From: Nannochloropsis oceanica
Taxonomy: Eukaryota; Sar; Eustigmatophyceae; Eustigmatales; Monodopsidaceae
Reading direction: 5' to 3'
Length of the DNA stretch: 64,000 nucleotides
Assembly: GCA_004519485.1 (NCBI GenBank)
Contig: CP038128.1
Span: 1,443,001 to 1,507,000 of the forward strand
Positions 38,813 through 62,572 of this stretch are shown here, one piece after another (within the stretch, counting starts at the first letter, position 1; every line of letters begins with the position of its first letter). The notes beneath the pieces are model-generated. The model did not search any database, was not told the DNA's origin, and worked only from the letters and a program-made list of their open reading frames with translations. The position numbers were made by a program, and so were the translations under genes.

Positions 38813-40538
38813 GCAGCTTCTCGACATACTCTTTAGCGGTCCTTAATATTTCGATAGGAGGGGAACCACACTTTGTAGGGGGGGGGGCACTCTGGAAAAG
38901 GTAATACCGTTCAAGAACCGAAACCATACGGAGTGTGTATGTTGGGTCTTGTGACAAGGAATCTCAGGACGAGAAATGAATTTGGAACACGATTCGGAGA
39001 GCAAACCACGTCCCAAAACATAACCGAAAACCGAACGGGATAAGCCCGAAACCACAAAACCGAAATAATAAACCAGAAACCACAAAACCAAAAGAATAAA
39101 CCCAAAACCAATCCTCGTCTTCGATCGTCCATTAGTTTTGTGTGTGATTTTTTCCCCCTCCCATTCCTCTTGTGTTTGTTTGTTTGTCAAGGTCTTTGGT
39201 TGTCCTCTCATGGGCCATGGCACCCCGCCTTGCAGGCCCGACCTCTCCGGTGCGGGATGCGATGCGTGTCATGCGTTCGTTTTTATGGCGACGCGCCCCT
39301 TTTCCTCGCATTTCTGACACGGAAGGGTGAGATTCCTCCCTCTCCCTCTGTTGTCATTACCACCCACATAGTTTGGGCCCTGCGATTTATGTCACTCTAT
39401 CTTACTGAAATTGCTTGGGGGGGATGGCAATGTAAGGCGTCGTTGAGGGCCCATGTGGCGGCCATACGCATATGTCGGAGGGAGCCAGAGTCTACCATCT
39501 GTTTGCATCCCTCCGCACCCATATATTGTACCGGGCTCTCAATTTCTCTGGTGGCTTGGATCTCAGTGCACTCTGCACGCACACACGTGCCCTGTGCGTC
39601 AGGAAGTGAGCCTTGGCTGCCCCTCAAAAAGCCTTCCGCGACCACCAGGCTGTGTATATATATAACGTTTTGCGCCCCCCTCTGCTCTTGTCTCGACACA
39701 ATGCACCCATACGCTCATTCTCCAAGCAAACACCAGATAATATACAACAATTCACTCACAGCACTCTTCCCCAACCGAACGATCCACTTTCCTGCTGACA
39801 ATGTCTTCGATGCGTCAGCGCTGGTCTCCCCTTCTTGGAGCGCTTGGGTAAACCTAAGCGCAGGGCCTGAGTGAGATGGCGACAAGGAGATTCAACCGAC
39901 AATCAACAGACTGTTGGAAGAGGCCCCTTTGGGCATGCTGGTTTGCGTCGCATCCCTCACCAACACACCCCCTTCCCCTCCTTCACCCTCCTCCCCTCCT
40001 CCCCCTTGCACCGCACCTCCTCACACCCTTCCCTTTCCCCTTTTGTCCTGTTTTAAACCCCTTCCCTTGGTATGGGCTTTTTCATACTTTTCCAAGTCTC
40101 CTTCTCCTCGTGGCTGTCATCGCCTCTTCTTCCCTCCTCACTTCTCCCCTTCCCCTTCTTCACTACCCCGCCTCCTTCCTCTTCCGTCCTCTTCCAATCC
40201 CCTTTTCCCTCCGCTCGCTTCCTCCTGCCATTCCCCTTCTCTCTTCCCTTCCATATTTATTCCTCCTCCCCTTCGCCTCCTCTTCCCCTCCCTGCCCCCC
40301 TACTCTTTCTCGGCCCTACCCGCATTCCCATCCATACCTTGCGCAAGGTGCTTCACGAACAGATTAAGACGATTTGTTTTTATCGTCCCTGTTTTTCACA
40401 TCTGCTTGGCCGCAGATATTTCTAACACCGAAGATACCGCATGCTTTTGCCACCCTCCATCAAAGCACTCATCTATTTATACTCTACTGTACACCTCACC
40501 ATTACATTACAGCACAAAAGCTTCCCCCGTAAAACACC
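38813..40538. other. Upstream region of secreted-protein gene A
   Basis: No gene was recognised. It contains A-rich repeats of the AACCACAAAACC type (39000-39110). It also has a stretch (39190-39900) shared with copy B at 51350-52200, and a 380-bp almost pure pyrimidine tract (about 39955-40330) that copy B lacks. The last 30 bp before the secreted-gene start are conserved between copies, so the core promoter is probably nearby. Confidence 0.5.
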
Positions 40539-41117
40539 ATGCATCGCGCCCTTTCTCTGCTTGCCCTCGGCATCACCCTCGCCCTGACGGCGGCTCAGCC
40601 GATGTTGACCCTCACCTCCATTAAGGCAGTCGACTCGACTAGCGACAACAAGGATCAATGGAGCATGAAGGGCTTCCTCAACGATCCTGATGCCGATTTC
40701 GTCTCTACCATCGCCGATGAGGGCTTGTTTGTAGACTTGTACAACGATGAGTTTGACATCAATGATGACGACAGTGACGTGAGTGTGGTGGAATTTGCCG
40801 CGGCTGATTGTAGAGACCTCAGCAACGGCAGGGGAGTCCTTTGCAAGGATGCGGGCGCCCGTATCTCGTTCAAGAAGACGAAGAGGGTACCGCATGAGGC
40901 CAAGGTGAAGGCGATGAAGAACCACAACAAGACGGACAGCGCTTCTTCCTACTACAGTGTGTCGGGTGTTTTCCGCCGTCAGCAATTCGAGAACACTATC
41001 TCTAACTCAGCGAATCTGACAGCTGCTACTTCTACTACCCAGCTAGGTGCTGAAGACACACTCTCTAACTGCAGGGAGAAGGGGGGTGCCAGGACCACCA
41101 AGCTCTTCTGCCAGTAA
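40539..41117 (+). CDS. Small secreted protein with four C-terminal-half cysteines, copy A
   Basis: 192 codons, ATG 40539-40541, stop TAA. I do not recognise the family. A clear signal peptide (MHRALSLLALGITLALTA, cleavage likely after AQ) is followed by an acidic, variable region and then a conserved region. That region has two Cys pairs with similar surroundings: C-RDLSNGRGVL-C-KDAGAR and C-REKGGARTTKLF-C near the end. Between them lies a basic stretch with KTKRVPHEAKVKAMKNHNK and YYSVSGVFRRQQFENTISNS. There are no membrane segments besides the leader, so secretion or delivery to a vacuole or plastid is likely. The paralogue at 52363-52926 has identical ends and a different acidic segment and penultimate region. 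No intron is needed. Confidence 0.7.
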   Translation: MHRALSLLALGITLALTAAQPMLTLTSIKAVDSTSDNKDQWSMKGFLNDPDADFVSTIADEGLFVDLYNDEFDINDDDSDVSVVEFAAADCRDLSNGRGVLCKDAGARISFKKTKRVPHEAKVKAMKNHNKTDSASSYYSVSGVFRRQQFENTISNSANLTAATSTTQLGAEDTLSNCREKGGARTTKLFCQ

Positions 41118-41645
41118 ATGCCATCGCATTGAGGTCGGGCCTGCACTCGGCGCTCGACTCACCGGCAAGAGACCCTCCACGTCCTGCCTCTTGTATATCT
41201 ATGTGTGACTGTGTCTTGTATGCCCGCTCAGGTTGGAAGCCCTCCAGTTTCCGTTCCTGACGCGTCGGTTTGTCCATGTGCGTAAACAGTGTTCTTGTTT
41301 GATGTGTTGTGCATGTGTTGTGCTGTGTATGTGTCCCATCTCCTCTCTCGAGCCCTTCTCGTGTTGTATGCTTGTATTCCCCGGACGGCCCCAGAGAGCC
41401 AAGTCTCGGAGTTTGATCTTTGGTGCCTGAAGTTCAACTCTGTCAATATTCCAAAAGAAGGACAGGCCTTTCGCAGGCGATTATTTGCGAAATAAAATCT
41501 GCTTATAAAATGACAATACTCCATTTCTTTTGGTCGCCGTACGTAAGTTTGAATTTTCTATAGGTAGACTTTGCCCTCTGGGCATTCGATGGGGTAGGTG
41601 AAGACTAGCCCATCGAAAGGCTTCTAGCACCAGCATCGTCGTCAA

Positions 41646-42818
41646 GCATGAGGAGCACGGGGAGCAGGAGGAGCAGGAGGAGAAAGTGCAAGAGGAGAAA
41701 AAAACGCAGAAGGAGGATAAGAGGAGAAATAGATTCAAGAGGGACGACGAGGACGAGGAGACGGAGACAGACTGTAAGCAGCAGCATTAGCAGCAAGGAA
41801 AAGAAACGCAGGAGGAGGAGCAGGAGGACGAGGAAGAGGTCAAGGAGAAAGACGAAGAGGAGGAAGAGGAGTTGGTGGTGGAAAAGGAAGAAGAGAAGGG
41901 GTACGAGGATGAAGTCGCGGTGAAGGAGAGGAGGTGCTCGAAGAGGTGCAGGAGGAGGAGCAGCGTTAGTAAAGAATACCAGGAGAAATAGTAGTAGGAG
42001 GAGGAGGAGCACAAGGAGAAGCAAGAAGATGAAACGGACGAAGAAGATGAGGAAGAGCAGGAGGAGAAGGAGTAATCCGAGGAGGAAGAGGGCGAGGAGG
42101 AGGAGGGGGAGGAGTAGGAGGAGGAGGAGGAGGGGAGGAAGATCAGAATGAGTGCCGATTTTATACTTGACGCCATTCCTACTTCATTTACACGATTGTT
42201 ACCATCAAGAGGTGGAGGAAGAGGGAGAGGAATTGAAAAAGGAAGAAGAAGAAGGAAAACAAGAAGGAGAAGAGGAAGAACAAGAAGAAGAGGAAGAAGA
42301 AGGAGAAGAAGAAGAAGAAGAAGGGGAAGATGATGAAGAAGAAGAAAAAGAAGAAGAAAATGAAGAGAAAGAAGAAAAAGAAGAAGAAGCAGAAGAATGA
42401 GGAGGAGAAGGAGGAGGAAGAAGGGGGGGGAGGAGGAGGAGGAGAAGGAGGAGGAGGGAGAGGAGGAGGAAGAGATGAAGAGGTGGTGATGGAAGAGATG
42501 GAGGCAGTTGAAGAGGATGTGGCGCTTTAAGAAGAGGAGCAGGAGCAGGAGCAGCAAAAGCAGGAAGAGCAGGAGAAGAAATATAAAGAAAAGGAAGCGG
42601 GGGAAGAGAAGGAGCAGGAAGAGCAGGCCTAGGAGAGTAGGAGGATCAGTAGGCGAAAGACCAGGAGGAGGAGCAAAAGCTAGAAAATGAGTGGAGGAGA
42701 AGAGGAGGAAGAGGAGACGTTGGAGGAGGAGAAGGAAAAGATGGAAGAGGAGGCACAGAAGGAGGAAGATGAGGAGGAGTGCGGGTGGAAGAGGAGAATG
42801 TCGTCGAAGAGGATGAAG
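41646..42818 (+). repeat. Long purine-rich (G/A) tract, copy A
   Basis: About 1.2 kb is nearly all A and G on the plus strand, built from AGGAGG, GAAGAA and AGCAGG units. A short normal stretch interrupts it at about 42150-42215. Both strands have long open frames (Glu/Lys/Arg-rich or Ser/Leu-rich) only because stops are rare in such sequence. It ends where the duplicated GAG-rich end of the lumenal-protein gene begins (42819). Confidence 0.9.
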
Positions 42819-42931
42819 GAGGAGGGAAACGGAAAACAGGAGAGAGGCGGTAAAGTTTGTCAAGCTAGTAGGGAGATCTTTGCAAGAAATCGACCGTATC
42901 TCCTGCACGGTGCTGCCCGAGGGGGAGCCAT
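42819..42931 (+). pseudogene. 3' fragment of the lumenal-protein gene
   Basis: It matches about the last 37 codons of the gene at 37586-38266, including the GGCGGTAAAGTTTGTC region and the final LPEGE-like codons. Substitutions and small indels break the frame and the upstream part is missing. It is a remnant of segment duplication. Confidence 0.75.
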
Positions 42932-43483
42932 GAGGTGATAAAAAGTGTGAAGAAGAAGAAGAAGAAGAAAAAGAAGAAAAAGAAGACGACGAATAATATA
43001 CAAGCAAGAAGATTGACCGGTAGTAAAAGCAATGGCGTCTTTCTTTTCAGTGATGGAGTCTTCTTGTTGTCTTTCTCTGCCGTCATTCTACTCCATTATA
43101 CCAAGATGAGCCAATGTAGATGTTACACGTTTCAGTCACAGAAATCTACAAGTAGTCCGAAGAGAGTCCCTTTTCTACCTCAATGCCTTGGACTTTATTT
43201 TCTCGTCCCGGCACTTTACAATCCAGGTAATGACAACAGAAACCATCGTCAAGTTCTCTTCATGCTACGGTGCTCAGGAAAAGCCCAAGTCAACAAGAAA
43301 AAGACTGCAGATCACGGCCACAAAGCATGCGGATTGGAAGTGGAGGTTCATGACGCTGCCCGCATGCGCCTGATAGGCTTTGCAGTGGTCGACCGTCTTA
43401 GCCGCGTACTCGTACGAGAGGACGACGAGGTAGCCAGACAAAAGGGCGAAGACGGCGACCAGAAGGGTCACAAACACGTCCGA
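42819..43483 (+). repeat. Direct repeat F2 (partner of F1 and F3)
   Basis: Here the lumenal-gene part is broken and the ENT part is intact, the reverse of F1. F1 and F2 thus bracket the secreted-gene cassette (38813-42818) as direct repeats. A GAA-triplet expansion near 42950-42985 is specific to F2/F3. Confidence 0.85.
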
Positions 43484-44894
43484 TTGCGGGACGTGTGCGG
43501 GGAAGAAGATGTAGACCAGAAATAGAAGCAAGAGGGACATGCGGGCCAGCGTAGCAGATACAAGTTGTGACGATTGCGATATAGGGAGATAGTGGGGGAG
43601 AAGGCAAGCGAGAGGACGCCCAAGAAAGTCGGCGAAGAGACGCACAAAATAGAGCAGCTCGCAGACACAGTAATTGGACTGCGGGCGGCTGCTCTGTACA
43701 TAGGCCAGGAGTGACGATTGGAAGATGGACGAGGCAATGGTAATGGATAGTACCCAGCAATAGGGCGCTATTGTTGCTTCCACAAAGTCCCGTTCCGCCT
43801 CTGACAGGGCCTGGATGACGGCATTGGATGATAAATGAGTGGTGCGGCTGCACGCTCGGCTGTTGCTACTGATATTTAAGGTGGTAGTTTTGCTTGTAGA
43901 TGGGGTGCTGCTGTGACGTCCGACTTGGTTGTCAATGGCGGACGCATGTAAAAGGGAAGCGTCCTCCTCCTGAACCTTTTCTCCGCATTTCTCCTCAATC
44001 CGCCCCGCGACTGGAAGAAAGCTGACCTGTCCTCCTCGGTCCTTCAAATGCAGTAGCGCTTGTGTCGCAGGGTGGGACATGAGATAGACCCATATTCCCG
44101 CTCCGCTAAACACCAGTGCTGCCGTGAAATGGAAGAGAAGGCGCAAGTCGCTGTTTTTTGGGTGAGCATTTATTTGGAGAAAGGAGACCATACCTTTGAG
44201 GAAAATGGGAAGCGTCAAGGAGGGGATGAAATGATTTTTTGTTCTATTTTCCGCCCAGTTCGTCCCCACGCTTACCAAGTGTATATATTTCTGGCATCCG
44301 AAAACCTGATTGTAACCATACCAGGGCTGCAGGGGGAAATATGCTCACCACTGTGGAAGCTGTGCCATGCGCCAACCAGGAGAAGGCACCCATAATGCTA
44401 GTGAGCCCAAGTAGAGTTGGCGCGTCGGAGGCCGGGACCGAGGGGAGGCAAAGCAGGGTAAGCGTCAAAATGAGGGTGGCTGAAATGATACGGGTAAGAT
44501 AGGCGGCGTGGGAGCCAAGGCGTGAGTCGAAGGTCGAGTCGTAGTGTTGTTGAAGGAGGGCGAGTGGGAGGCCAGGGAGGTAATACGCACAATTGAGTCT
44601 AACAAAAAATGCGGGGCCGTGATGCTCTTTGAAATAAGAAACAAGAGAGCCCATAACAGTCCATGGCGACATGTAGGTGAAGGCAAGCAGGAGAAAGCAG
44701 GGACCCAAGGTCGGAGTTGGGGTAAGGGATGGATTGTGTGTAGACAAAGGAGTGCTTGGGGAGTAGGGGGAAGAAGACGTTATAAATGAAGAGCGGGTAC
44801 AGCTATCTATGCCATTTATTGCCATGAACCTGCTCGTATCACTCTGTTCAACTTTATCGTTATGGTTTCCGCGTGTGGTACTGGGTGTGGTCAT
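43274..44894 (-). CDS. Equilibrative nucleoside transporter (ENT/SLC29), copy A
   Basis: Multi-pass transporter of nucleosides or nucleobases. The first exon has FTYMSPWTVMGSLVSYFKEH, FVRLNCAYYLPGLPLALLQQ, SATLILTLTLLCLPSV, and MGAFSWLAHGTASTVVSIFP followed by LQSGFRMPEI. A 75-bp intron (GTAAGC to CAAAG near 44195-44268) joins in phase to the second exon. That exon has LLFHFTAALVFSGAGIWVYL, a hydrophilic loop, APYCWVLSITIASSIFQSSL, and the ENT hallmark ELLYFVRLFADFLGRPLACL. It continues with ARMSLLLLFLVYIFFPAHVP, VFALLSGYLVVLSYEYAAKT and a last helix ending LVDLGFS, stop TGA 43274-43276. The ATG at 44892-44894 gives a short Ser/Thr-rich N-terminus. A longer frame extends upstream but only to a GTG. 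Family topology (about 11 helices, C-terminus outside) fits. Copy B at 55083-56703 appears identical. Confidence 0.82.
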
Positions 44895-45580
44895 GCACTT
44901 GGACAGCGACGAGGGGCAAGTCTGGGCTCCTTGGCGAAGAGGAAAGGATGACTGCAGAATGGCTGGGAGGACAGGCGACCCAATGGCAGATTTCACTCCT
45001 GTTGATGCGGTATTTGATGCAGATCTTTGACCTGCGTTAAGTTTTTTCACTGGCGTATAAGTAGCGTGAGGCTCTGAAATTTGCCTCCCTCCTCCCTCGT
45101 CTTCTGTCCAGACAAACCGAAAATTGCTGAGAGAAAGGCTTGTAGCTTTTTGCCAGCTCCAAAAAATTCTTTGACGTATGTTGCTTGAGTATATTTAAGA
45201 TGGAAAGCTCTTTAAGAGTGCTGCTGTCAGCGCTCACTCTTGTTGTTCGGGCATTGGTGTGAGGTGTTGAAACGGCTCGAAAGCAATGTTGCCAAGAGCG
45301 AGGCTCCGCATCGAGGCACCGTGTGACAGGCTCTTCACCTTCATTCGGCCGAGGCAAAAAGGCAGTAGGGTCGTTGACTTGTATGAAAGGGCTTTGCCCA
45401 TGTGACTAGCAGCAATACTGTTCCTGGTCTATGCATAAAGCTGCGCACCACCGGCACCATTTGTTTACAAATCTCTCACTTTTACGCAAACATTTCCGAC
45501 AGGGAAAACGAGCGAGATCACCAGCCAACTCCGTCATATCACGCCCCGAAGCCCAGCCCCACCCCTCCTCACCATCGATC
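44895..45580. promoter_or_regulatory. Divergent spacer between ENT and the plastid-protein gene
   Basis: About 690 bp between divergent starts, copied unchanged at 56704-57389. It contains no recognisable gene. An open frame on the minus strand (45037-45357) has no ATG start and no known content. Confidence 0.4.
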
Positions 45581-48466
45581 ATGCAACGCCTCGGCGGCCA
45601 TTGGCTCACGATGTTCCTAATCTCCGTCCACGCAGCGACTGCCTTCCTTATCCCGTCTTGTCCTTACACGTGCCTCGCGGGGCCCACCAGGGTTACCAGG
45701 ACGGCCGGCCGCCAAGGCGACCATTATCACCACTCCTTGTTAGATAGAAGACGGAAGCCCTACTCTTGGTCCTCCCTCGCCGCCACCACCTCCTCCTCCT
45801 CCTCCTCGGCACGCACGACAGTCGAGGGCCAGACGCCTGTCCTTCTTCGTGCCGACATATCAGGGTTGTCGCGTGAGCAAGCCGTCGCGTGGGTCCATGC
45901 TTGGTGCTCGCGATCCCTTCCTACTCCCCCGCCTTCCTCTCCTGCCTCCTCCTCCTCCTCTCCCTCACCTACCTCTGCCACTACCCGCCCCTTCGGCGGA
46001 CAAAGCAGCAGTACTACAGCATATGCCGCGGGCTTGCAGGCCCAGCCTGGGTTGCCCGTGGGTGGAACAAGTCTACCAATCTCCCCCTCCCTCACAGCCC
46101 AGGGGGCCCGCGTCGTGTGTCAAGGCCTGGGGCCCGCATTTTTGGACATCGAGGTACTTGGTGGCGGCGGAGGGGGGGGAGGAGGGACGGTGACGATGAT
46201 AGTGCTGCAGTGCATGAGCCAAGCACAGATGCAGCGGCATTCCACATCCATTCGCGGGCTTGCACGGGATACGGAGAAGGCGGTCCTGGAGAAGTTTAAG
46301 GTAGACTTGTCCCGGACTTTGGAAGGAGGAAGGGAGCGAGGAGTGAGTGTCTCGCTTTATACAGAGGAAGAAGCGGAGGCCATGGGTGCGGTGGGGGGGG
46401 CGGCAGCCGGACCGGTGCCCGCCGTGATGGACGTGGACGACGGGTACTTGTTGCTGGAAGACAAGGGCCTGAAGGAAAAGGACCAGGATGAACAGAAGGA
46501 GGAGAGCAGTGGCAACAGTCACGACAAGGCTGCGGAGGACGCGCGCCTGCGGGAACTGGTGGAAAGCCTGGGGTTGGCCGAGGCCCTGAACCTGGACGAC
46601 CTTGAAGGGAGAGGAGGGTACGCGGACCCGACCTCGCCATTTGCCCAGAAGGCGGTGGCGGCCTACGAGGCATTTGTGCAGGCTCAGAAGAAAGGCGAGG
46701 CGGAGGGAGGGGGCGACGTGGCCTCGGCGGTGGCTGGGATGGGGGAAGTGGTGCTCGACGACCTCGACGGGAGCGGGAAGGAAGGAGGGGTGACGCCGGA
46801 GGACGTGCGAGCTATGTTCGAAGGAGGGGTGCGGAGTGCCATGCAAGAGGCGAACCGAGTGGCAGCCAAGGGGCAGCGGCGGAAGCGAGTGCTGGCGGCC
46901 GTCAAGGAGGTGGCTCAGAGCAAAGAGAAGGAAGAGGAGGGAGGCGGAGGAGTGAAGGAGGGGTTGGTGACGCTGCAGATGATGTTTGAGGGCACGGGGC
47001 TGAAGGGTGGCCTGGACGTGCTGGCAGGACCACTGGGGGAGACGAGTGAGGACTTAGCGTCGTGGGAGAGGGACAGGGAGGGAGCGGGTGAGAAGGAAGG
47101 CGCGGTGCTCCAGAGCTTGGAGGAGGAGGAGGAGGAGGAAGACGATGAAGACGAGTGGGACGAGTCGCTGGGGGTCACGGGCGAGGCAGACCCTTTCGGT
47201 GACGTGGGGTGGGACGTGGCGGCGCGGTTTGACCTGCTGGTGCGGGAGCTGGAGGCGACAGTGGACTCGCCCGACCTACTGCCGGGCATAGCTAGCCAGT
47301 ACCACAACGTCTTCCTAAGCCGTCACTTCCTTGGGCTGATGAGAGCCAGGCTGGAGGCGTGCGAAGCGGCAGCAGGAGGCGAGGAGGAGGAGGAGGAGGG
47401 AGGCAGGTGGGGTGTTGGTCGGAGCGAGGTGACGGCGGCGACGCCTGTGGTGCTGGCGCGCATGGTGAGTTTCGCGGAGCAGTTGGTAGTGCAGGTGCAG
47501 GAGATGGGCCAGCTGTACGAGCTGCAGCAGCTGGACAAGATCAAGGCCATCTGTGCCGTGGCGGAGGAGGACATGAGCAAGCTCTCGGAGTACGTCTCGA
47601 GCCGCAAGGACGAGCTCGACGAGGACTTCGTGCGGTACCTGCAGTACCTGCTCGAGGCGGAAAAGGTGCGGCTGAAGGGGGCGGGTGTGGCGCGGCCGGA
47701 GCGGGAGCCGTCCAACTGGCTGATGATCCTGGAGATTGTCAAGAAGGGCGTCTACCACGAGATGGGCAAGGCGGTGCGCGACGACGTGAGCATGGTCCAC
47801 TTCATCACGCGCTTCGAGGAGGCCGACGAGCGCGAGCATCTGGCGCGTGCCCATATTGCACGCCTGGCGCCCTCCCAGGTCATCCCTTTCAAGCGGGTGG
47901 TGACGCAGATGGTCGACCACTTCGAGAGCCGCGTGAACGACCTGACCGAGGCCGAGCTGGCGCTGGCGGGTAAGGTGCTCGAGGTGGAGGATATCTTGGA
48001 GGAAGTGCACCCGGACTCGTCGCTTCTAGCACTTCTGCAGACCAAGGAGGGCGGGTTGGGGCTGGAGGCCTACAAAATGGGTGCTGAGACGCTGTTGCAC
48101 GACCCCCGCGAGTGGGACGACAGCGCGTTGGCTGGCCGGGAGGACGAGCTCTTTTCGCCTGAGTACTTGGCTGCCAAGTACGACCGCATCCTCAAACACT
48201 ACGGATTTACCGCTTCCGGTCAGGAAGGCCGGGGCATGGGGAACGTCGGGGAGGATGAAGAGAAGGAAGGGAAGGAGGATATCGAGCAGGAAAGGATACT
48301 TGGCGAGGGATCGGCAGGAGCAATTGGCCGGGGATCTGCCGGGACGTTGCCCGCTAATCTTGCCAAAACTGTAGCTGGGAAGGGCGGGGAGAAGGAAGAG
48401 GAGGTGGAGGAGACGGGGGGTTCCGGGAGCATTCTTGAGGCGCTTCAAGAAGAAGGTGTGCTGTAA
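45581..48466 (+). CDS. Large plastid-targeted protein of unknown function
   Basis: Intronless, about 961 codons, ATG 45581-45583, stop TAA. I do not recognise a domain. The N-terminus is a signal peptide ending AATAF (A-x-A/F), followed by a basic Ser/Thr-rich transit stretch (RTAGRQGDHYHH, LDRRRKPYSWSSLAATT), so import into a secondary plastid is likely. The first third has a compact segment (TPVLLRADISGLSREQAVAW and ARVVCQGLGPAFLDIEVLGG) with a poly-Gly run. The middle is acidic and repetitive (Glu/Gly-rich). The last third (about 560-860) is strongly helical and looks conserved: YELQQLDKIKAICAVAEEDM, NWLMILEIVKKGVYHEMGKA, MVHFITRFEEADEREHLARA and ELALAGKVLEVEDILEEVHP. The GC-rich third-codon use fits a real gene. 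A truncated copy of its first 59 codons sits at the telomere (57390). Confidence 0.8.
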   Translation: MQRLGGHWLTMFLISVHAATAFLIPSCPYTCLAGPTRVTRTAGRQGDHYHHSLLDRRRKPYSWSSLAATTSSSSSSARTTVEGQTPVLLRADISGLSREQAVAWVHAWCSRSLPTPPPSSPASSSSSPSPTSATTRPFGGQSSSTTAYAAGLQAQPGLPVGGTSLPISPSLTAQGARVVCQGLGPAFLDIEVLGGGGGGGGGTVTMIVLQCMSQAQMQRHSTSIRGLARDTEKAVLEKFKVDLSRTLEGGRERGVSVSLYTEEEAEAMGAVGGAAAGPVPAVMDVDDGYLLLEDKGLKEKDQDEQKEESSGNSHDKAAEDARLRELVESLGLAEALNLDDLEGRGGYADPTSPFAQKAVAAYEAFVQAQKKGEAEGGGDVASAVAGMGEVVLDDLDGSGKEGGVTPEDVRAMFEGGVRSAMQEANRVAAKGQRRKRVLAAVKEVAQSKEKEEEGGGGVKEGLVTLQMMFEGTGLKGGLDVLAGPLGETSEDLASWERDREGAGEKEGAVLQSLEEEEEEEDDEDEWDESLGVTGEADPFGDVGWDVAARFDLLVRELEATVDSPDLLPGIASQYHNVFLSRHFLGLMRARLEACEAAAGGEEEEEEGGRWGVGRSEVTAATPVVLARMVSFAEQLVVQVQEMGQLYELQQLDKIKAICAVAEEDMSKLSEYVSSRKDELDEDFVRYLQYLLEAEKVRLKGAGVARPEREPSNWLMILEIVKKGVYHEMGKAVRDDVSMVHFITRFEEADEREHLARAHIARLAPSQVIPFKRVVTQMVDHFESRVNDLTEAELALAGKVLEVEDILEEVHPDSSLLALLQTKEGGLGLEAYKMGAETLLHDPREWDDSALAGREDELFSPEYLAAKYDRILKHYGFTASGQEGRGMGNVGEDEEKEGKEDIEQERILGEGSAGAIGRGSAGTLPANLAKTVAGKGGEKEEEVEETGGSGSILEALQEEGVL

Positions 48467-51726: not shown

Positions 51727-52362
51727 ATGAATGGCAATGCAGGGCGTCGTTGAGGGCCCATGTGGCGGCCATACGCATCCGTCGAAGTCCCTAGTCCGCC
51801 AGAGTCTACCATCTGTTTGCATCTCTCCGCACCCATGTATTGTACTGGCCTCTCAATTTCTCTGGGGGCTTGGATCTCAGTGCTCTCTGCATGCAGACAC
51901 GTGCCCTGTCCGTGAGGAAGGGAGCCTTGGCTGCCCCTCAAAAAGCCTTCCGCGACCACCAGGCCAATGCGATGGCATCTAGCGTCTGCGCCCCTCTCCG
52001 CTCTTGTCTCGACATAATGCACCCATGCGCTCATTCTCCAAGCAGACACCAGATCATATACGACAATTCACCCGCAGCACTCTTTCCCAACCCAACGATC
52101 CACTTTCCTGCGATGTCTTCGATGCGTCTGAACTCGTCTCTCCACCTTGGCCCACTTAAATAAGCCTAAGCATGGGGCCTCTTGAGTGGGACGGCGACTA
52201 GCAGCATAAACCTACATCTAGTAGGCTGTTGCAAGAGACTCCTTTCGGCATGCTGGTTTGCGTCAAACCCCCTCGAGCACACACACCTCATCCCCCTTCT
52301 TCCTTCCTCTCCCCCACCCTCCTCCCACCATTACAGCCAACTAGCTTCCCCCGTAAAACACC

Positions 52363-52926
52363 ATGCATCGCGCCCTTTCTCTGCTTGCCCTCGGCATCAC
52401 CCTCGCCCTGACAGCGGCTCAGCCGATGTTGACCCTCACCTCCATTAAGGCAGTCGACTCGACAAGCAACAATCAGGACAAATGGAGCATGAAGGGCTTC
52501 CTCAACGATCCTGATGCCGATTTAATCTCGACCATCGCCGATGAGGGCTTGAGCGCGGACCTTGTAAACAGTGACGATCTTCTTGTGAGTGATGTGACAT
52601 TTGCCGCGGCTGCTTGTAGAGACCTCAGCAACGGCAGGGGAGTCCTTTGCAAGGATGCGGGCGCCCGTATCTCGTTCAAGAGGACGAAGAGGGTACCGCA
52701 TGAGGCCAAGGTGAAGGCGATGAAGAACCACAACAAGACGGACAGCGCTTCTTCCTACTACAGTGTGTCGGGTGTTTTCCGCCGTCAGCAATTCGAGAAC
52801 ACTATCTCTAACTCAGCGAATCTATCAGGAAGTCTTGGCAACAACCAGGCATTTACTGACGAGCCCACACTCTCTAACTGCAGGAAGAAGGGGGGTGCCA
52901 GGACCACCAAGCTCTTCTGCCAGTAA
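52363..52926 (+). CDS. Small secreted protein with four C-terminal-half cysteines, copy B
   Basis: 187 codons, ATG 52363-52365, stop TAA. Paralogue of 40539-41117, with the same signal peptide, the same first Cys pair (CRDLSNGRGVL-C) and the same C-terminal pair. The central region is almost unchanged except K/R at FKRTKR. It differs in two short places: the acidic segment after DEGL (SADLVNSDDLLVSDVTF here, longer and more Asp-rich in A) and the segment before the last Cys pair (SGSLGNNQAFTDEP here, AATSTTQLGAED in A). The 15-bp length difference keeps the frame, which argues that both genes are under selection for a working protein. The family and function are unknown. Confidence 0.7.
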   Translation: MHRALSLLALGITLALTAAQPMLTLTSIKAVDSTSNNQDKWSMKGFLNDPDADLISTIADEGLSADLVNSDDLLVSDVTFAAAACRDLSNGRGVLCKDAGARISFKRTKRVPHEAKVKAMKNHNKTDSASSYYSVSGVFRRQQFENTISNSANLSGSLGNNQAFTDEPTLSNCRKKGGARTTKLFCQ

Positions 52927-53454
52927 ATGCCATCGCATTGAGGTCGGGCCTGCACTCGGCGCTCGACTCACCGGCAAGAGACCCTCCACGTCCTGCCTCT
53001 TGTATATCTATGTGTGACTGTGTCTTGTATGCCCGCTCAGGTTGGAAGCCCTCCAGTTTCCGTTCCTGACGCGTCGGTTTGTCCATGTGCGTAAACAGTG
53101 TTCTTGTTTGATGTGTTGTGCATGTGTTGTGCTGTGTATGTGTCCCATCTCCTCTCTCGAGCCCTTCTCGTGTTGTATGCTTGTATTCCCCGGACGGCCC
53201 CAGAGAGCCAAGTCTCGGAGTTTGATCTTTGGTGCCTGAAGTTCAACTCTGTCAATATTCCAAAAGAAGGACAGGCCTTTCGCAGGCGATTATTTGCGAA
53301 ATAAAATCTGCTTATAAAATGACAATACTCCATTTCTTTTGGTCGCCGTACGTAAGTTTGAATTTTCTATAGGTAGACTTTGCCCTCTGGGCATTCGATG
53401 GGGTAGGTGAAGACTAGCCCATCGAAAGGCTTCTAGCACCAGCATCGTCGTCAA

Positions 53455-54627
53455 GCATGAGGAGCACGGGGAGCAGGAGGAGCAGGAGGAGAAAGTGCAA
53501 GAGGAGAAAAAAACGCAGAAGGAGGATAAGAGGAGAAATAGATTCAAGAGGGACGACGAGGACGAGGAGACGGAGACAGACTGTAAGCAGCAGCATTAGC
53601 AGCAAGGAAAAGAAACGCAGGAGGAGGAGCAGGAGGACGAGGAAGAGGTCAAGGAGAAAGACGAAGAGGAGGAAGAGGAGTTGGTGGTGGAAAAGGAAGA
53701 AGAGAAGGGGTACGAGGATGAAGTCGCGGTGAAGGAGAGGAGGTGCTCGAAGAGGTGCAGGAGGAGGAGCAGCGTTAGTAAAGAATACCAGGAGAAATAG
53801 TAGTAGGAGGAGGAGGAGCACAAGGAGAAGCAAGAAGATGAAACGGACGAAGAAGATGAGGAAGAGCAGGAGGAGAAGGAGTAATCCGAGGAGGAAGAGG
53901 GCGAGGAGGAGGAGGGGGAGGAGTAGGAGGAGGAGGAGGAGGGGAGGAAGATCAGAATGAGTGCCGATTTTATACTTGACGCCATTCCTACTTCATTTAC
54001 ACGATTGTTACCATCAAGAGGTGGAGGAAGAGGGAGAGGAATTGAAAAAGGAAGAAGAAGAAGGAAAACAAGAAGGAGAAGAGGAAGAACAAGAAGAAGA
54101 GGAAGAAGAAGGAGAAGAAGAAGAAGAAGAAGGGGAAGATGATGAAGAAGAAGAAAAAGAAGAAGAAAAAGAAGAGAAAGAAGAAAAAGAAGAAGAAGCA
54201 GAAGAATGAGGAGGAGAAGGAGGAGGAAGAAGGGGGGGGAGGAGGAGGAGGAGAAGGAGGAGGAGGGAGAGGAGGAGGAAGAGATGAAGAGGTGGTGATG
54301 GAAGAGATGGAGGCAGTTGAAGAGGATGTGGCGCTTTAAGAAGAGGAGCAGGAGCAGGAGCAGCAAAAGCAGGAAGAGCAGGAGAAGAAATATAAAGAAA
54401 AGGAAGCGGGGGAAGAGAAGGAGCAGGAAGAGCAGGCCTAGGAGAGTAGGAGGATCAGTAGGCGAAAGACCAGGAGGAGGAGCAAAAGCTAGAAAATGAG
54501 TGGAGGAGAAGAGGAGGAAGAGGAGACGTTGGAGGAGGAGAAGGAAAAGATGGAAGAGGAGGCACAGAAGGAGGAAGATGAGGAGGAGTGCGGGTGGAAG
54601 AGGAGAATGTCGTCGAAGAGGATGAAG
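53455..54627 (+). repeat. Long purine-rich (G/A) tract, copy B
   Basis: Counterpart of 41646-42818. I noticed one difference (AAAAAG at 54169 versus AAAATG in A). Keeping such a slippage-prone tract this similar argues for very recent duplication or gene conversion. Confidence 0.9.
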
Positions 54628-55292
54628 GAGGAGGGAAACGGAAAACAGGAGAGAGGCGGTAAAGTTTGTCAAGCTAGTAGGGAGATCTTTGCAAGAAATC
54701 GACCGTATCTCCTGCACGGTGCTGCCCGAGGGGGAGCCATGAGGTGATAAAAAGTGTGAAGAAGAAGAAGAAGAAGAAAAAGAAGAAAAAGAAGACGACG
54801 AATAATATACAAGCAAGAAGATTGACCGGTAGTAAAAGCAATGGCGTCTTTCTTTTCAGTGATGGAGTCTTCTTGTTGTCTTTCTCTGCCGTCATTCTAC
54901 TCCATTATACCAAGATGAGCCAATGTAGATGTTACACGTTTCAGTCACAGAAATCTACAAGTAGTCCGAAGAGAGTCCCTTTTCTACCTCAATGCCTTGG
55001 ACTTTATTTTCTCGTCCCGGCACTTTACAATCCAGGTAATGACAACAGAAACCATCGTCAAGTTCTCTTCATGCTACGGTGCTCAGGAAAAGCCCAAGTC
55101 AACAAGAAAAAGACTGCAGATCACGGCCACAAAGCATGCGGATTGGAAGTGGAGGTTCATGACGCTGCCCGCATGCGCCTGATAGGCTTTGCAGTGGTCG
55201 ACCGTCTTAGCCGCGTACTCGTACGAGAGGACGACGAGGTAGCCAGACAAAAGGGCGAAGACGGCGACCAGAAGGGTCACAAACACGTCCGA
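54628..55292 (+). repeat. Direct repeat F3 (copy of F2)
   Basis: Same structure as F2: broken lumenal-gene 3' fragment (54628-54740) followed by the intact ENT 3' end. It was carried along in the duplication of the unit. Confidence 0.85.
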
Positions 55293-56703
55293 TTGCGGGA
55301 CGTGTGCGGGGAAGAAGATGTAGACCAGAAATAGAAGCAAGAGGGACATGCGGGCCAGCGTAGCAGATACAAGTTGTGACGATTGCGATATAGGGAGATA
55401 GTGGGGGAGAAGGCAAGCGAGAGGACGCCCAAGAAAGTCGGCGAAGAGACGCACAAAATAGAGCAGCTCGCAGACACAGTAATTGGACTGCGGGCGGCTG
55501 CTCTGTACATAGGCCAGGAGTGACGATTGGAAGATGGACGAGGCAATGGTAATGGATAGTACCCAGCAATAGGGCGCTATTGTTGCTTCCACAAAGTCCC
55601 GTTCCGCCTCTGACAGGGCCTGGATGACGGCATTGGATGATAAATGAGTGGTGCGGCTGCACGCTCGGCTGTTGCTACTGATATTTAAGGTGGTAGTTTT
55701 GCTTGTAGATGGGGTGCTGCTGTGACGTCCGACTTGGTTGTCAATGGCGGACGCATGTAAAAGGGAAGCGTCCTCCTCCTGAACCTTTTCTCCGCATTTC
55801 TCCTCAATCCGCCCCGCGACTGGAAGAAAGCTGACCTGTCCTCCTCGGTCCTTCAAATGCAGTAGCGCTTGTGTCGCAGGGTGGGACATGAGATAGACCC
55901 ATATTCCCGCTCCGCTAAACACCAGTGCTGCCGTGAAATGGAAGAGAAGGCGCAAGTCGCTGTTTTTTGGGTGAGCATTTATTTGGAGAAAGGAGACCAT
56001 ACCTTTGAGGAAAATGGGAAGCGTCAAGGAGGGGATGAAATGATTTTTTGTTCTATTTTCCGCCCAGTTCGTCCCCACGCTTACCAAGTGTATATATTTC
56101 TGGCATCCGAAAACCTGATTGTAACCATACCAGGGCTGCAGGGGGAAATATGCTCACCACTGTGGAAGCTGTGCCATGCGCCAACCAGGAGAAGGCACCC
56201 ATAATGCTAGTGAGCCCAAGTAGAGTTGGCGCGTCGGAGGCCGGGACCGAGGGGAGGCAAAGCAGGGTAAGCGTCAAAATGAGGGTGGCTGAAATGATAC
56301 GGGTAAGATAGGCGGCGTGGGAGCCAAGGCGTGAGTCGAAGGTCGAGTCGTAGTGTTGTTGAAGGAGGGCGAGTGGGAGGCCAGGGAGGTAATACGCACA
56401 ATTGAGTCTAACAAAAAATGCGGGGCCGTGATGCTCTTTGAAATAAGAAACAAGAGAGCCCATAACAGTCCATGGCGACATGTAGGTGAAGGCAAGCAGG
56501 AGAAAGCAGGGACCCAAGGTCGGAGTTGGGGTAAGGGATGGATTGTGTGTAGACAAAGGAGTGCTTGGGGAGTAGGGGGAAGAAGACGTTATAAATGAAG
56601 AGCGGGTACAGCTATCTATGCCATTTATTGCCATGAACCTGCTCGTATCACTCTGTTCAACTTTATCGTTATGGTTTCCGCGTGTGGTACTGGGTGTGGT
56701 CAT
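55083..56703 (-). CDS. Equilibrative nucleoside transporter (ENT/SLC29), copy B
   Basis: Second copy of the ENT gene at 43274-44894, offset by 11,809 bp. Every stretch I compared is identical, including the intron (near 56004-56077), the ADFLGRP hallmark and the stop at 55083-55085. Its whole upstream spacer is also copied, so it should be expressed like copy A unless silenced by its position, about 0.9 kb from the telomere repeats. The start is taken at ATG 56701-56703, as for copy A. Confidence 0.8.
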
Positions 56704-57389
56704 GCACTTGGACAGCGACGAGGGGCAAGTCTGGGCTCCTTGGCGAAGAGGAAAGGATGACTGCAGAATGGCTGGGAGGACAGGCGACCCAATGGCAGAT
56801 TTCACTCCTGTTGATGCGGTATTTGATGCAGATCTTTGACCTGCGTTAAGTTTTTTCACTGGCGTATAAGTAGCGTGAGGCTCTGAAATTTGCCTCCCTC
56901 CTCCCTCGTCTTCTGTCCAGACAAACCGAAAATTGCTGAGAGAAAGGCTTGTAGCTTTTTGCCAGCTCCAAAAAATTCTTTGACGTATGTTGCTTGAGTA
57001 TATTTAAGATGGAAAGCTCTTTAAGAGTGCTGCTGTCAGCGCTCACTCTTGTTGTTCGGGCATTGGTGTGAGGTGTTGAAACGGCTCGAAAGCAATGTTG
57101 CCAAGAGCGAGGCTCCGCATCGAGGCACCGTGTGACAGGCTCTTCACCTTCATTCGGCCGAGGCAAAAAGGCAGTAGGGTCGTTGACTTGTATGAAAGGG
57201 CTTTGCCCATGTGACTAGCAGCAATACTGTTCCTGGTCTATGCATAAAGCTGCGCACCACCGGCACCATTTGTTTACAAATCTCTCACTTTTACGCAAAC
57301 ATTTCCGACAGGGAAAACGAGCGAGATCACCAGCCAACTCCGTCATATCACGCCCCGAAGCCCAGCCCCACCCCTCCTCACCATCGATC

Positions 57390-57566
57390 ATGCAACGCCT
57401 CGGCGGCCATTGGCTCACGATGTTCCTAATCTCCGTCCACGCAGCGACTGCCTTCCTTATCCCGTCTTGTCCTTACACGTGCCTCGCGGGGCCCACCAGG
57501 GTTACCAGGACGGCCGGCCGCCAAGGCGACCATTATCACCACTCCTTGTTAGATAGAAGACGGAAG
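57390..57566 (+). pseudogene. Plastid-protein gene truncated by telomere repeats
   Basis: This is the first 59 codons of the gene at 45581-48466, identical through the signal peptide and ending in LLDRRRK. After base 57566 the sequence changes abruptly to GGTTAGGG repeats. The promoter region is intact, so a short transcript into telomere sequence is conceivable, but no functional protein can result. Confidence 0.92.
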
Positions 57567-57837
57567 GGTTAGGGTTAGGGTTAGGGTTAGGGTTAGGGTT
57601 AGGGTTAGGGTTAGGGTTAGGGTTAGGGTTAGGGTTAGGGTTAGGGTTAGGGTTAGGGTTAGGGTTAGGGTTAGGGTTAGGGTTAGGGTTAGGGTTAGGG
57701 TTAGGGTTAGGGTTAGGGTTAGGGTTAGGGTTAGGGTTAGGGTTAGGGTTAGGGTTAGGGTTAGGGTTAGGGTTAGGGTTAGGGTTAGGGTTAGGGTTAG
57801 GGTTAGGGTTAGGGTTAGGGTTAGGGTTAGGGTTAGG
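57567..57837 (+). repeat. Telomere array (TTAGGG)n, right end of a chromosome
   Basis: 271 bp of perfect TTAGGG units, about 45 copies, with the G-rich strand running 5' to 3' to the right. This is the orientation of a right chromosome end. It abuts coding sequence directly, with no subtelomeric transition. Confidence 0.97.
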
Positions 57838-57937
57838 NNNNNNNNNNNNNNNNNNNNNNNNNNNNNNNNNNNNNNNNNNNNNNNNNNNNNNNNNNNNNNN
57901 NNNNNNNNNNNNNNNNNNNNNNNNNNNNNNNNNNNNN
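57838..57937. other. Assembly gap, 100 N, between two telomeres
   Basis: Exactly 100 unknown bases between a right-end telomere and a left-end telomere, most likely a scaffolding join of two chromosome ends. Confidence 0.95.
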
Positions 57938-58236
57938 TAACCCAACCCTACTAACCCTAACCCTAAACCCTAACCTACCCTAACGCCTCACCTAACCTAC
58001 CCCCCTCACCCTCACCCCTCCCCCTACCCTACCTCCTACACCTCCCCCTACACGCTGCATACCCTCCCCTCACACCCTCCCCCTACCCCTCGGCCCGCTC
58101 CCTCCGTACCCTCCCCTCACCCTCCCTCTCCCCCCCCCCTCACCCCCCACACCAACAAACCCCCCTAATGCCCCTTCAACTCTCACCCTACCCCTACCCC
58201 TACCCTAAACCCTAACCCTAACCCTAACCCTAACCG
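57938..58236 (+). repeat. Degenerate telomere repeats (CCCTAA and variants), left end of a chromosome
   Basis: The stretch begins with CCCTAA-like units, passes through C-rich variants (CCCTCACC, CCCCCTACC) and returns to clean CCCTAA units at about 58203-58236, just before unique sequence. C-rich on the plus strand is the orientation of a left chromosome end. Confidence 0.92.
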
Positions 58237-59008: not shown

Positions 59009-61509
59009 ATGGTAAGCAGTTTATCCTCTCGACTTCCTTGTCGCCCCCATCCTCCTCCTCCTCCTTCTCTTCCTCCTTTTCAATCACCCCATCCTCTTCC
59101 TCTTCATCCTCTTCCTCATTCTGCTCTCCTTTTCTTCTTCATTCTCCTCTCTCCCCCCTATACGCTCGACTCCTCATTCCCTCCTCCCAAACTAATGCCC
59201 ATTCCTTTGTTCCATGACAGGAGGTTGCTGGGAGCATCAGCCAAAAGAAGGGCACCCATGCACGCCCCACTGCTGCCTCCATCACTTCCTTCTCTTCCTC
59301 TAGCAACCGCCGGGTCTCCTCCTCGTCGGGCGAGTCCACCGACCCGTTGGAACTTAGCACGGAGTTTTCCGTCGAGGGAGGAAGAGAGGGGGCGAGGGGA
59401 AAGGAGAGTTGGGAAGCGGAGAGACGAAGACCTGTGGTGTTAACCCCTCCGCCCCGGGCTCGCTATGATGACCCAGTAGAGGAGGAGGAAGGAGAGGGAG
59501 GAGCGGCGCCAGGATTAATTGCACGGGGACTGGACGAGGAAGGTGGAGAAGTGCCCCCCCTCCCTCCTCCTTCTTCACTCCAGCAAGTGCAACGACAGCA
59601 GCATCCGCTCTCTTCCTCTTCCTCCTTTGGGTTCATATCCAGGTCGCAGGGTGCTGCCACCACCACCAACAACACTGACCATCATCGTCATCACCAGCAG
59701 GAGCCGAAAGAATATACAGACGGGGATCACGAGGCAGGGGATGGGGGAGGAGGAGGACGAGACTATTTCTTCCCGCCCTCTCCCCCTCCTCCTCCTTCCC
59801 CTCCTATTCCTCGTCCTCTTCTGGGTTCGTCCCTGTCGCTGACGCCTGAAAGGAAGGACGGCCGATCGAGTGCCCGCTTGAATACGAAAGCAGCAGGACC
59901 GGCATTAGCATCAGCATCTCCTCCTCCTCCTCCTTGTGCGCTGTATGGGGAGCAGGAGGGGAGGGCTGGAGGACGGGCGGGAGGGATGTGCGATGGTGGA
60001 GGGGGCGGAGGAGAAGGCAGAAGTGGAGGAGGGGAAGGAGGAAAGAGGGGATCGGACATCTTATACGGAAGAGGAAAGGGGCTGATGGAGGCAGAGCCAT
60101 CGATGGAGGGAAGGGGGGAGGAGGAGGAGGAGGAGGAGGAGGAGGAGGAGGAGAGGGCGGAGGATGGAAGGATGGAGGGAATGAGGGAAGAAGAGGACCT
60201 TTACAGAGCTGGAGAGGTGGTCGAGATAGATGGAGAGAGGGAAGGCCTGCGAAAGGCCGGAGGGGAAGGTATCGGGGAAAGGGGGGAGGAGCTGTCTACT
60301 CTCCTCCAGCAGCAGCAGCAGCAGCAGCAGCAGGAGGAGGAGGAGGAGGAGGAGAAGCAGCAGCAGAAGCTGCAGCCGCATCCAGCCTCCGGCATCGGGG
60401 AGAGGGCTCCGACCAGCACGGGGGCGGGAGGGCATGTGGAAGGGTGCGAGCAGGAGGGAGGGAGGGAAGGAAGGGGGGAGGGGATGGGCAGGCTGGGATA
60501 GGACCCACTTGAGGGACGGTGGAGACATTAGGCTGCTGCCGTGTGTGGAAACACCCGGCTCCTGCCCGGCCTGGGGCTCATTTCATCATGGCATCAATCT
60601 CACCCCTCCCTCCCTCCTTGTCTCGCTCCCTCCCTCCGTCAGGGCCTACGACCCAGAGGAATACGCCTACATGCTCCCCTCTCTGCCCCTGGACGTCCGG
60701 GAGGTGCTCGCCTTTGTGACTCGGTGAAGGAGGGAGGGAGGGAGGGAGGGAGGAGTGAGGGAGGGAGGGAGAGAGGGAGGAAGGGGATGAGGCGAGAAAA
60801 AAAACTCTCGCGTCTTACACCATTTTCGAAAACCCTTCGTCTCCTTCCCCCCCTGCCCCCCTTCCTCCCCCTCCTCGCTTCCTAGCTACCGCCCTCACGA
60901 CTGCGAGCTCGAGACGCCCCTTAAATGCTTCATCCCCGACTTCCAGCCGGCTGTGGGCGACATCGACCCCTTCCTCAAGGCGAGTGAGAGGGAGGGCGGG
61001 AGGGCGGGGGGGCTGGTGCAGGTGTCATCACACCAACATTTCCCTTTGCATTTTCTTGTGACAGATGCCGCGGCCGGACGGGGTGGCCGACGAGCTCGGA
61101 CGAAAGGTAAGCGCAACCCAATCCAATGCAGAGCCTCCGTGCCTCCCTCCCTGCCTTCTCCCTCACCTGCTCTCTCCCTCTCTCCTTCCCTCCCTCCTTC
61201 CCCCCCTCCTCTTCCAGGTGGTCGACGAGCCAGCGCCGCGGCAGAGCGATCCCACCATCCTCGGTACGGCCCCTCTCTCCCTCCTTCCTCTCCTCTTTCC
61301 CTTCCGTCCTTTCTCCCTCCCTCTCTCCCACCTCCCACACCCGTCCTTTTCTGCTTGCTTACCTCCGCTCGTCGCCCCCCCCTCCTACTCCCCCTCCGCC
61401 AGAACTCCAGCTGGTGGCCTTGTCCAAGATCAGGGGCCGCAAGGCAGAGGAGCTCGTGCAGGTAAGGAGGGCAGGCGCGAGGGAGGACGGGCGGGAGGGA
61501 GTGGGTGCA

Positions 61510-61552
<43 letters not shown>

Positions 61553-62572
61553 AGGCAGGGACAAGCAGGACGGAGCGACCTTGACCACCCCCCTCAGGAT
61601 CCCTCCATCCCTCTCTCCTTTCCTCCCTCCTACCCCCCCTCCCTCCTTCTCGCTCTTTCGCCCATTTCCTTCAGGTCCGCGGCATTGATGATGCGGCCAA
61701 GCGCCCCCGGGAGGTGGACCGTTGGATCGAGAGCGTCTCGAGCCTGCACAGGAGTCTGCCCCCGACGCTGGTAGGAAGGGAGGGAGGGAGTGACGGGAGG
61801 AAGGAAGGAGAGAGGGGGGAGGAAAGAAGGGAGGGGGGAGAGTCATCGGGTCTGGGAGCTTGTCACGTCTGCTCATTCGCCATGCCCCCCTCCCTCCCTC
61901 CCTCCCTCCCCTCCTCCAGGCCACCTACTCCAAGCCCATGCCCGACGTGGACCGGCTGATGCAGGCGTGGCCCGCGCCCGTCCACGCCGCCGTGGCGGGG
62001 GCCAAGGAGAAGGTGGGGACGGAGGGACGGAGGGACGGAGGGACGGAGGGAGGGAGGTAGGGGGGGTCCGAACGAACACTCACAGGCTCATCTCTCATGC
62101 GCAGTCGAGCGTCGCTGGTGCCGACACCTTCCTCCCTCAGCTCCTCCCTCCCTCCCTGGACCTCTCCCTCCACGAGTACGCCAAGACAGCCTGCGCTCTC
62201 TTCGGCATCCCCGTATACGAGAACGAGAACGGGTAGGTCACCTCCCTCCCTCTCTCCTTCCCTCCCTCCCTCCCTCCCTCGGTCCCTCCCTCCCATTCTC
62301 GTACCTCCCCCTGGGAAGGCATTTTTCACTTTTACAACTGTCGGTGCAACGTTTGTTCCCTCGTTGCCTGCCTCCTCCGTCTTCGTCAGCCGGCTCGTCT
62401 TAGACCGATTTATGTCTCCCCCTCCCTCGCTCCCTTCCTCCTCCCTCGCTTCCTCCCTCTCAGCCTGCTCGAGTCCCTCCACGCCCTCTTCACCCTCTTC
62501 CTGGCCTTGAAGGAGAGGGAGCAGCCGCCTGCATTTCCAGAGAGGGAAAGGAGGGAGGGAGGGAGGGAGTGA
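59009..62572 (+). CDS. IFT46: Intraflagellar transport protein 46
   Basis: Core subunit of the IFT-B complex that carries cargo along the flagellar axoneme. Exon 1 is only ATG (59009-59011) followed by GTAAGC. Exon 2 resumes at 59221 (EVAGSISQKKG) and encodes about 400 residues of low complexity (Glu, Gly, Ser, Pro, Gln runs). The conserved part is split over many short exons: AYDPEEYAYMLPSLPLDVRE, YRPHDCELETPLKCFIPDF, PAVGDIDPFLK, MPRPDGVADELGRK, VVDEPAPRQSDPTIL, ELQLVALSKIRGRKAEELVQ, VRGIDDAAKRPREVDRWIES, ATYSKPMPDVDRLMQAWPAP, LDLSLHEYAKTACALFGIPV and LLESLHALFTLFLALKE. All match IFT46 in order to its end. The stop is TGA 62570-62572, after a short tail read through GGGA repeats. Human IFT46 is about 300 residues, so the N-terminal extension is extra. 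The gene starts about 770 bp from telomere repeats. Confidence 0.95.
60302..60370 (+). repeat. CAG/GAG triplet run in IFT46 exon 2
   Basis: CAG and GAG triplets encode Gln and Glu runs in the disordered N-terminal extension. A similar GGA/GAG run lies at 60118-60155. Confidence 0.85.

What the first reader, a model, noticed from the sequence alone, without database searches (positions are those of the whole stretch)
57567..58236. Two chromosome ends joined head to head across a 100-N gap
The left contig ends in perfect TTAGGG repeats running toward a right end, and the right contig starts with CCCTAA-type repeats as at a left end. Exactly 100 N lie between them. The simplest reading is that scaffolding joined two separate chromosomes. 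A true end-to-end fusion would also place the arrays in this order, but would not explain the standard-size gap. Gene order across this point should not be trusted.
Basis: seen in the sequence. Interest (0 to 1): 0.8.

Follow-up and report, generated by a model that had tools for sequence, protein, structure and literature searches.

The report
Chromosome ends wrongly joined during assembly
Two chromosome ends sit face to face here most likely only because the assembly software ordered its pieces wrongly, and since the same mistake recurs across this published alga genome, gene order there needs correcting.

Summary
In detail: a perfect TTAGGG array (45.5 copies) at 57565-57837, exactly 100 N, then a left-end, degenerate CCCTAA block at 57938-58235. 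It is an assembly artefact, but probably not the one proposed. The genome matches the published Nannochloropsis oceanica assembly of PMC6610115 (PacBio contigs ordered by Hi-C/LACHESIS, group number preset to 30). A telomere map shows the same join in 10 of 30 nuclear scaffolds; 5 more have one telomere against an internal 100-N gap. No scaffold carries more than two telomeres (two in 12, one in 17, none in 1; random placement P=0.00025). In the 10 joined scaffolds 0 of 20 outer ends are telomeric, against 16 of 40 in the other 20 (p=5e-4). The simplest reading is one chromosome per scaffold, rotated: its own two telomeres in the middle, its broken contig ends outside. Scaffold C8 fits: a Prp18 gene appears split over its outer ends. 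For C3 itself the split-gene test was inconclusive, and in four other scaffolds the outer ends carry different cut genes. A real fusion is very unlikely.

The parts
57565..57837 (+). Right-end telomere array, 45.5 perfect copies (44 exact TTAGGG units)
57838..57937 (.). Scaffolding gap, exactly 100 N
   Evidence: the same size in 10 of 10 such joins
57938..58235 (-). Left-end telomere block of the second contig, strongly degenerate (10 exact units, 20% of bases)
57240..57564 (+). Truncated copy of the ORF at 45431-48466, cut by the telomere after GACGGAAG
52329..57566 (.). Second copy of a subtelomeric block, 98.7% identical to 40505-45757, capped by the telomere
40505..45757 (.). First copy of that block
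55083..56859 (-). Two ORFs of the nucleoside-transporter copy nearest the left contig's end; PF01733 matches the ORF 55086-56087 only, the other has no Pfam match
60887..61767 (+). Two IFT46 exon matches (PF12317; the second below the curated cut-off), right contig
11167..11266 (.). Another 100-N gap in the window, not telomeric

Best explanation
The join is an ordering error of Hi-C scaffolding. Contigs of one chromosome were grouped correctly, but the linear order was opened at the wrong place: the two telomere-bearing contig ends were put side by side with a standard 100-N spacer, and the two broken contig ends that should be neighbours became the outer ends of scaffold C3. Swapping the two parts at the gap would give telomere - 78 kb - (missing sequence) - 1.50 Mb - telomere. 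Shown: the map of telomere arrays, gap sizes, outer ends, counts per scaffold. Inferred: that both parts of C3 are the same chromosome, and that telomere-telomere contacts in the nucleus misled the ordering step.
For: Same join, 100 N each, in 10 of 30 nuclear scaffolds; five more scaffolds with one array against an internal 100-N gap. The arrays found account for 588 of 588 reverse and 800 of 801 forward (TTAGGG)4 words (counts added up). 41 arrays in 30 scaffolds, never more than two per scaffold; in 20,000 random placements P(max<=2) is 0.00025 (equal weights) or 0.00005 (by length). Of 12 scaffolds with two arrays, 2 have both outside, 10 have both at one gap, 0 are mixed. Outer telomeres: 0 of 20 in joined scaffolds versus 16 of 40 in the other 20 (p=5.0e-4), or versus 16 of 30 in the 15 with no internal telomere gap (p=3.3e-5); left outer end alone 0 of 10: p=0.020 and p=0.0026. 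The last detected chorismate synthase exon at C3's right end reaches profile position 188 of 327, so that end looks like a broken contig. In C8 the only Prp18 domain match found in the genome (positions 112-142 of 143) lies at the left outer end, and a Prp18-like N-terminus runs off the right outer end (score 43 versus 21.7 +/- 4.0; 1 of 2000 shuffles reached it; probe recalled from memory). The paper reports LACHESIS, CLUSTER_N=30 and 129 contigs.
Against: No reads or Hi-C contacts were available here. The missing half of chorismate synthase was not found, so nothing directly ties C3's two outer ends. In five of ten joined scaffolds (C2, C3, C6, C10, C17) the two outer ends carry different cut genes, so sequence must be missing between them if they are neighbours; in four (C7, C12, C14, C19) nothing was recognised. 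The Prp18 N-terminus got no Pfam hit and only TPR hits by chance in the PDB; the C-terminal peptide got none there; none of the 25 tblastn rows aligned the probe's N-terminus to C8's right end. No sequence overlap of 60 bases or more joins outer ends. The displaced part is always the short right one (33-263 kb, 15 of 15), which rotation alone does not predict. C3's right array is degenerate, unlike the other 19. The comparison groups were chosen after seeing the data.
Confidence: 0.72

Rival explanations
1. Two different chromosomes (or a 78-kb terminal piece of another chromosome) were put into one Hi-C group because the group number was preset to 30. The join is still an artefact.
For: CLUSTER_N was set to 30 from N. 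gaditana rather than measured; section 18 of the paper says the tool yielded 29 nuclear groups, the results section says 30. Five of ten outer-end pairs carry different cut genes.
Against: It predicts some scaffolds with three or four telomeres and some telomeres on outer ends of joined scaffolds: 0 of 30 and 0 of 20 were seen.
Confidence: 0.22
2. A real head-to-head chromosome fusion.
For: Array order fits; a short gap-free head-to-head telomere remnant does exist elsewhere (C7 near 1,060,990).
Against: 100 N in place of sequence, the same join in 10 scaffolds, 44 exact units on the left, and no telomere at either outer end of C3. The gap-free case has only 3 and 4 exact units and no N.
Confidence: 0.02
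3. The right block is not a chromosome end but a degenerate telomere-like stretch or a poorly polished contig end, so only the left side is an end.
For: 20% of bases in exact units versus 87-100% in the other 19 arrays at joins. Five scaffolds do show an array against a non-telomeric contig.
Against: Next to unique sequence it has five CCCTAA units (one followed by an extra A), it ends at the gap in near-regular repeats, and it has the right polarity.
Confidence: 0.04

Closest known systems
Order and orientation errors of Hi-C scaffolders (e.g. the misjoins reported in PMC9861903; passages read)
   Same: Contigs joined wrongly at Hi-C junctions in a chromosome-scale assembly.
   Different: Here both sides are telomeres, the error has one form in a third of the scaffolds, and it looks like rotation of single chromosomes. 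PMC9861903 says its errors were not restricted to telomeres or centromeres.
Head-to-head telomere fusion site (human 2q13, recalled)
   Same: TTAGGG array facing CCCTAA array.
   Different: A fusion is continuous sequence with short decayed arrays (recalled); this has 100 N, one perfect array and no telomeres at the outer ends.
Reference-guided scaffolds of N. oceanica BR2 and KB1 (PMC6883114, whole text read)
   Same: Scaffolded by RaGOO on N. oceanica LAMB2011 (GCA_004519485, 32 sequences), which I take to be this assembly, so they may inherit the joins.
   Different: Not examined here; PMC6610115 does not name the strain, so the identity with LAMB2011 is inferred.

Membership tests
Hi-C scaffolding misjoin | Standard-size N gap between contig ends | tested here: met
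   100 N in 10 of 10 joins and 5 of 5 single cases
Hi-C scaffolding misjoin | Assembly made by Hi-C ordering of contigs | tested here: met
   Length of C1 (1,670,642) equals the longest pseudochromosome in PMC6610115; LACHESIS used. The total held here is 38,485 bases less than the paper's
Hi-C scaffolding misjoin | No reads or proper contacts support the adjacency | not testable with these tools
   no reads or contact maps on hand
Rotation of one chromosome | At most two telomeres per scaffold, and outer ends of joined scaffolds non-telomeric | tested here: met
   at most two in 30 of 30; 0 of 20 outer ends
Rotation of one chromosome | The two outer ends adjoin in the real chromosome | tested here: inconclusive
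   C8 supports; C2, C3, C6, C10, C17 carry different cut genes; C7, C12, C14, C19 not recognised
Two chromosomes joined | Some scaffolds with three or four telomeres, or outer telomeres in joined scaffolds | tested here: not met
   0 of 30 and 0 of 20; this counts against the class, not strictly against C3 alone
End-to-end chromosome fusion | Continuous sequence across the join | tested here: not met
   100 N

The most novel reading that the evidence does not exclude
The error pattern is a footprint of nuclear architecture: in N. oceanica the two ends of each chromosome, or all telomeres, touch so strongly that Hi-C sees nearly circular chromosomes, and the scaffolder opened the circle at an internal contig break instead of at the telomeres. 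If so, public Hi-C (GSE223130, SRR8420587, strain IMET1) should show strong telomere-telomere contacts.
Probability: 0.3. Interest if true: 0.5.

Novelty: not a real feature. Interest (0 to 1): 0.4.

Why it matters
Half (15 of 30) of the nuclear pseudochromosomes of this published assembly have a telomere at an internal gap. Gene order and synteny read across those points would be wrong, and chromatin analyses mapped to this assembly would be affected there. Two further public assemblies (BR2, KB1) were scaffolded on what appears to be this one. The error has one form and can be tested with existing Hi-C and long reads, and the telomere count fits about 30 chromosomes better than 40. The authors wrote that heatmap errors may come from repeats rather than from order and orientation (PMC6610115); the telomere map speaks against that.

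Tried and rejected
Overlap test: blastn of the 60 nuclear scaffold ends (3 kb each; 1.2 kb for C29 and C30 right), with two organelle starts, low-complexity filter on, hits of 60 bases or more: the only pair was C18 right with C20 right, so no overlap joins outer ends of one scaffold. Split-gene test for C3: the C-terminal half of chorismate synthase was sought by Pfam profile, by motifs in the fetched ends and window, by a degenerate DNA pattern and by a bacterial homologue, without result; one search had no positive control and these searches miss short exons. Motif scan for the other halves of cut genes, in fetched ends and six internal fetches only: nothing that pairs. Purine or pyrimidine character of the broken ends, read by eye, gave no signal. 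Literature: the listings showed no title or abstract start that reports these joins; one search showed 15 of 164 papers, 5 of 7 and 15 of 57; most subscription papers are not held, and the NanDeSyn paper (Gong 2020) was not read.

Gap size caveat: one further N run, at the start of the fetched right end of C12, is at least 152 long and is cut by the fetch boundary, so not every N run here is 100; it may be a withheld stretch.

Full report
Observation. Searches show a perfect AGGGTT array (45.5 copies; 44 exact TTAGGG units) at 57565-57837, 100 N at 57838-57937, and a C-rich telomere-like block at 57938-58235, followed by unique sequence. The polarity is that of two chromosome ends facing each other. 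The right block is degenerate: 20% of its bases lie in exact units, against 87-100% for the other 19 arrays at such joins.

Where it comes from. The window is C3:1443001-1507000 of a 29,264,788-base genome in 32 contigs. C31 and C32 are 38,068 and 117,556 bases, sizes that I recall as those of the organelles of this genus. C1 is 1,670,642 bases, exactly the longest pseudochromosome reported for Nannochloropsis oceanica in PMC6610115 (passages; sections 18 and 6). The paper's total, 29,303,273 bases, is 38,485 more than is held here. PMC6883114 (whole text) used N. oceanica LAMB2011, GCA_004519485, with 32 sequences; I take this to be the same assembly, but PMC6610115 names no strain. The assembly was made from 129 PacBio/Canu contigs ordered with LACHESIS, with the number of groups preset to 30 from N. 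gaditana; section 18 says 29 nuclear groups were obtained, the results section says 30. A search of the main text for 'telomer' found 0 occurrences.

Telomere map. One pattern search found the same telomere - gap - telomere join in 10 of 30 nuclear scaffolds: C2, C3, C6, C7, C8, C10, C12, C14, C17, C19; all ten gaps are exactly 100 N. Fetched scaffold ends show 16 terminal arrays. Word counts showed that more arrays existed (631 of 801 and 531 of 588 explained), and boundary patterns located them: single arrays abutting a 100-N gap with ordinary sequence on the other side in C16 and C18, C25 and C5 and C13. With short interstitial arrays the sum explains 588 of 588 reverse and 800 of 801 forward words; one forward word is unplaced. 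In all, 41 arrays: 16 terminal, 20 in joins, 5 single internal. Two further ends may be hidden: C20 starts with a TTACCC repeat, and C4's right end matches a subtelomere up to the array edge by eye; counting them would still leave no scaffold above two.

What the map says. Per scaffold there are two arrays in 12, one in 17, none in one (C22), never more. In 20,000 random placements of 41 arrays a maximum of two had P=0.00025 (equal weights) or 0.00005 (by length). In the ten joined scaffolds 0 of 20 outer ends are telomeric. The other 20 scaffolds have 16 of 40 (Fisher p=5.0e-4); the 15 of these with no internal telomere gap have 16 of 30 (p=3.3e-5). Counting only the left outer end, 0 of 10, the values are p=0.020 and p=0.0026. 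If separate chromosomes had been joined, some scaffolds should carry three or four arrays or an outer array. Each Hi-C group behaves like one chromosome with at most two ends; the fault is in the order. Exchanging the two parts at the gap would put each of the 20 joined arrays at a chromosome end.

Direct test of the outer ends. If rotation is right, the broken outer ends adjoin. Ten pairs were examined (the output was cut, and C2, C7, C8, C10, C12, C14, C19 were listed again). This N-terminal call is moderate: Pfam, the PDB searches and the 25 listed tblastn rows did not show it. C2 (PreP_C / Aminotran_5, both below Pfam's cut-off), C3 (chorismate synthase / PPR), C6 (unidentified ORF / ACC_central), C10 (RSE1-type propeller, below cut-off / SET-like by eye only, no Pfam hit) and C17 (Carboxyl_trans / adh_short, the latter below cut-off) have different cut genes at the two ends. 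C7, C12, C14 and C19 gave nothing recognisable. In C3 the last detected chorismate synthase exon reaches position 188 of 327 and ends 268 bases before the scaffold end; the rest was not found. The paper reports 255 of 303 BUSCO genes intact, so missing sequence between contigs is plausible, and the test is inconclusive for C3.

Mechanism. Inferred: contacts between telomeres in the nucleus exceeded contacts across a repeat-rich contig break, so the ordering step linked the two telomeric contig ends and opened the chain at the break. The displaced part is always the short one on the right (33-263 kb, 15 of 15, from the lengths and the gap positions); I read this as a convention of the software, but did not test it.

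Real internal telomere sequence for comparison. A gap-free head-to-head remnant exists in C7 near 1,060,990, with three exact TTAGGG and four exact CCCTAA units and no N. Short one-way interstitial arrays lie in C6 (two copies of one duplicated segment), C5 at 1,227 kb and C3 at 492 kb. They look unlike the join in the window.

The left end itself. The block 40505-45757 recurs at 52329-57566 with 98.7% identity. Over the last stretch aligned the second copy is identical to the first up to GACGGAAG and then turns into telomere, so the telomere caps a gene copy cut inside its reading frame. This looks like a healed or truncated end and supports the left side being a real chromosome end.

Consequences. 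BR2 and KB1 were scaffolded by RaGOO on LAMB2011 (PMC6883114), so they may carry the joins; I did not examine them. Chromatin work on IMET1 (PMC10436460, abstract and passages) also counts 30 chromosomes but points to the NanDeSyn assembly, which I could not check; a passage of PMC10943562 says that IMET1v2 was also scaffolded with Hi-C.

Noticed in passing
boundaries of 41 telomere arrays, e.g. left arrays of the C2, C6, C10, C12, C17, C19 joins; L085, L086: In 15 of 41 arrays the five bases just before TTAGGG are CTCTG (frequency 0.0009 per site taken from the window, binomial p about 1e-35; motif picked after looking). The 15 flanks of 200 bases show no blastn match to each other at E 1e-3. 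The same motif borders interstitial arrays in C6 and C7. It may be a preferred site of telomere addition, or a copy of sequence flanking the telomerase RNA template (inference).
   Followed up: partly
L089 (C7 near 1,060,990): Gap-free head-to-head telomere remnant, three TTAGGG - short spacer - four CCCTAA, then CAGAG: a likely real old fusion or insertion scar.
   Followed up: partly
L087 and L088 (C6 1,169,333 and 1,182,678): Two copies, 13.3 kb apart, of a segment with CTCTG plus seven TTAGGG units inside continuous sequence.
   Followed up: no
57240-57566: Telomere joined directly to a duplicated gene copy, with two bases (AG) that fit both sides at the junction.
   Followed up: partly
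57938-58235: The right array is mostly degenerate (20% of bases in exact units), unlike the 19 other arrays at joins; real variant repeats or poor polishing.
   Followed up: partly
60887-61767: IFT46 matches (PF12317 at 3.1e-11 and, below cut-off, 3.2e-4; a third peptide had none) in a species described as having lost its flagella; PMC6610115 counts 7 IFT-B genes.
   Followed up: partly
L028 (C20 left end): The scaffold starts with a TTACCC repeat rather than CCCTAA.
   Followed up: no
L044 (C4 right end): By eye the end matches the subtelomere of C2's left array up to the array edge, so C4 seems to stop just short of its telomere.
   Followed up: no
18757-19143: A 64-copy ATCCTA-type repeat, 74% matches, inside the window.
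   Followed up: no
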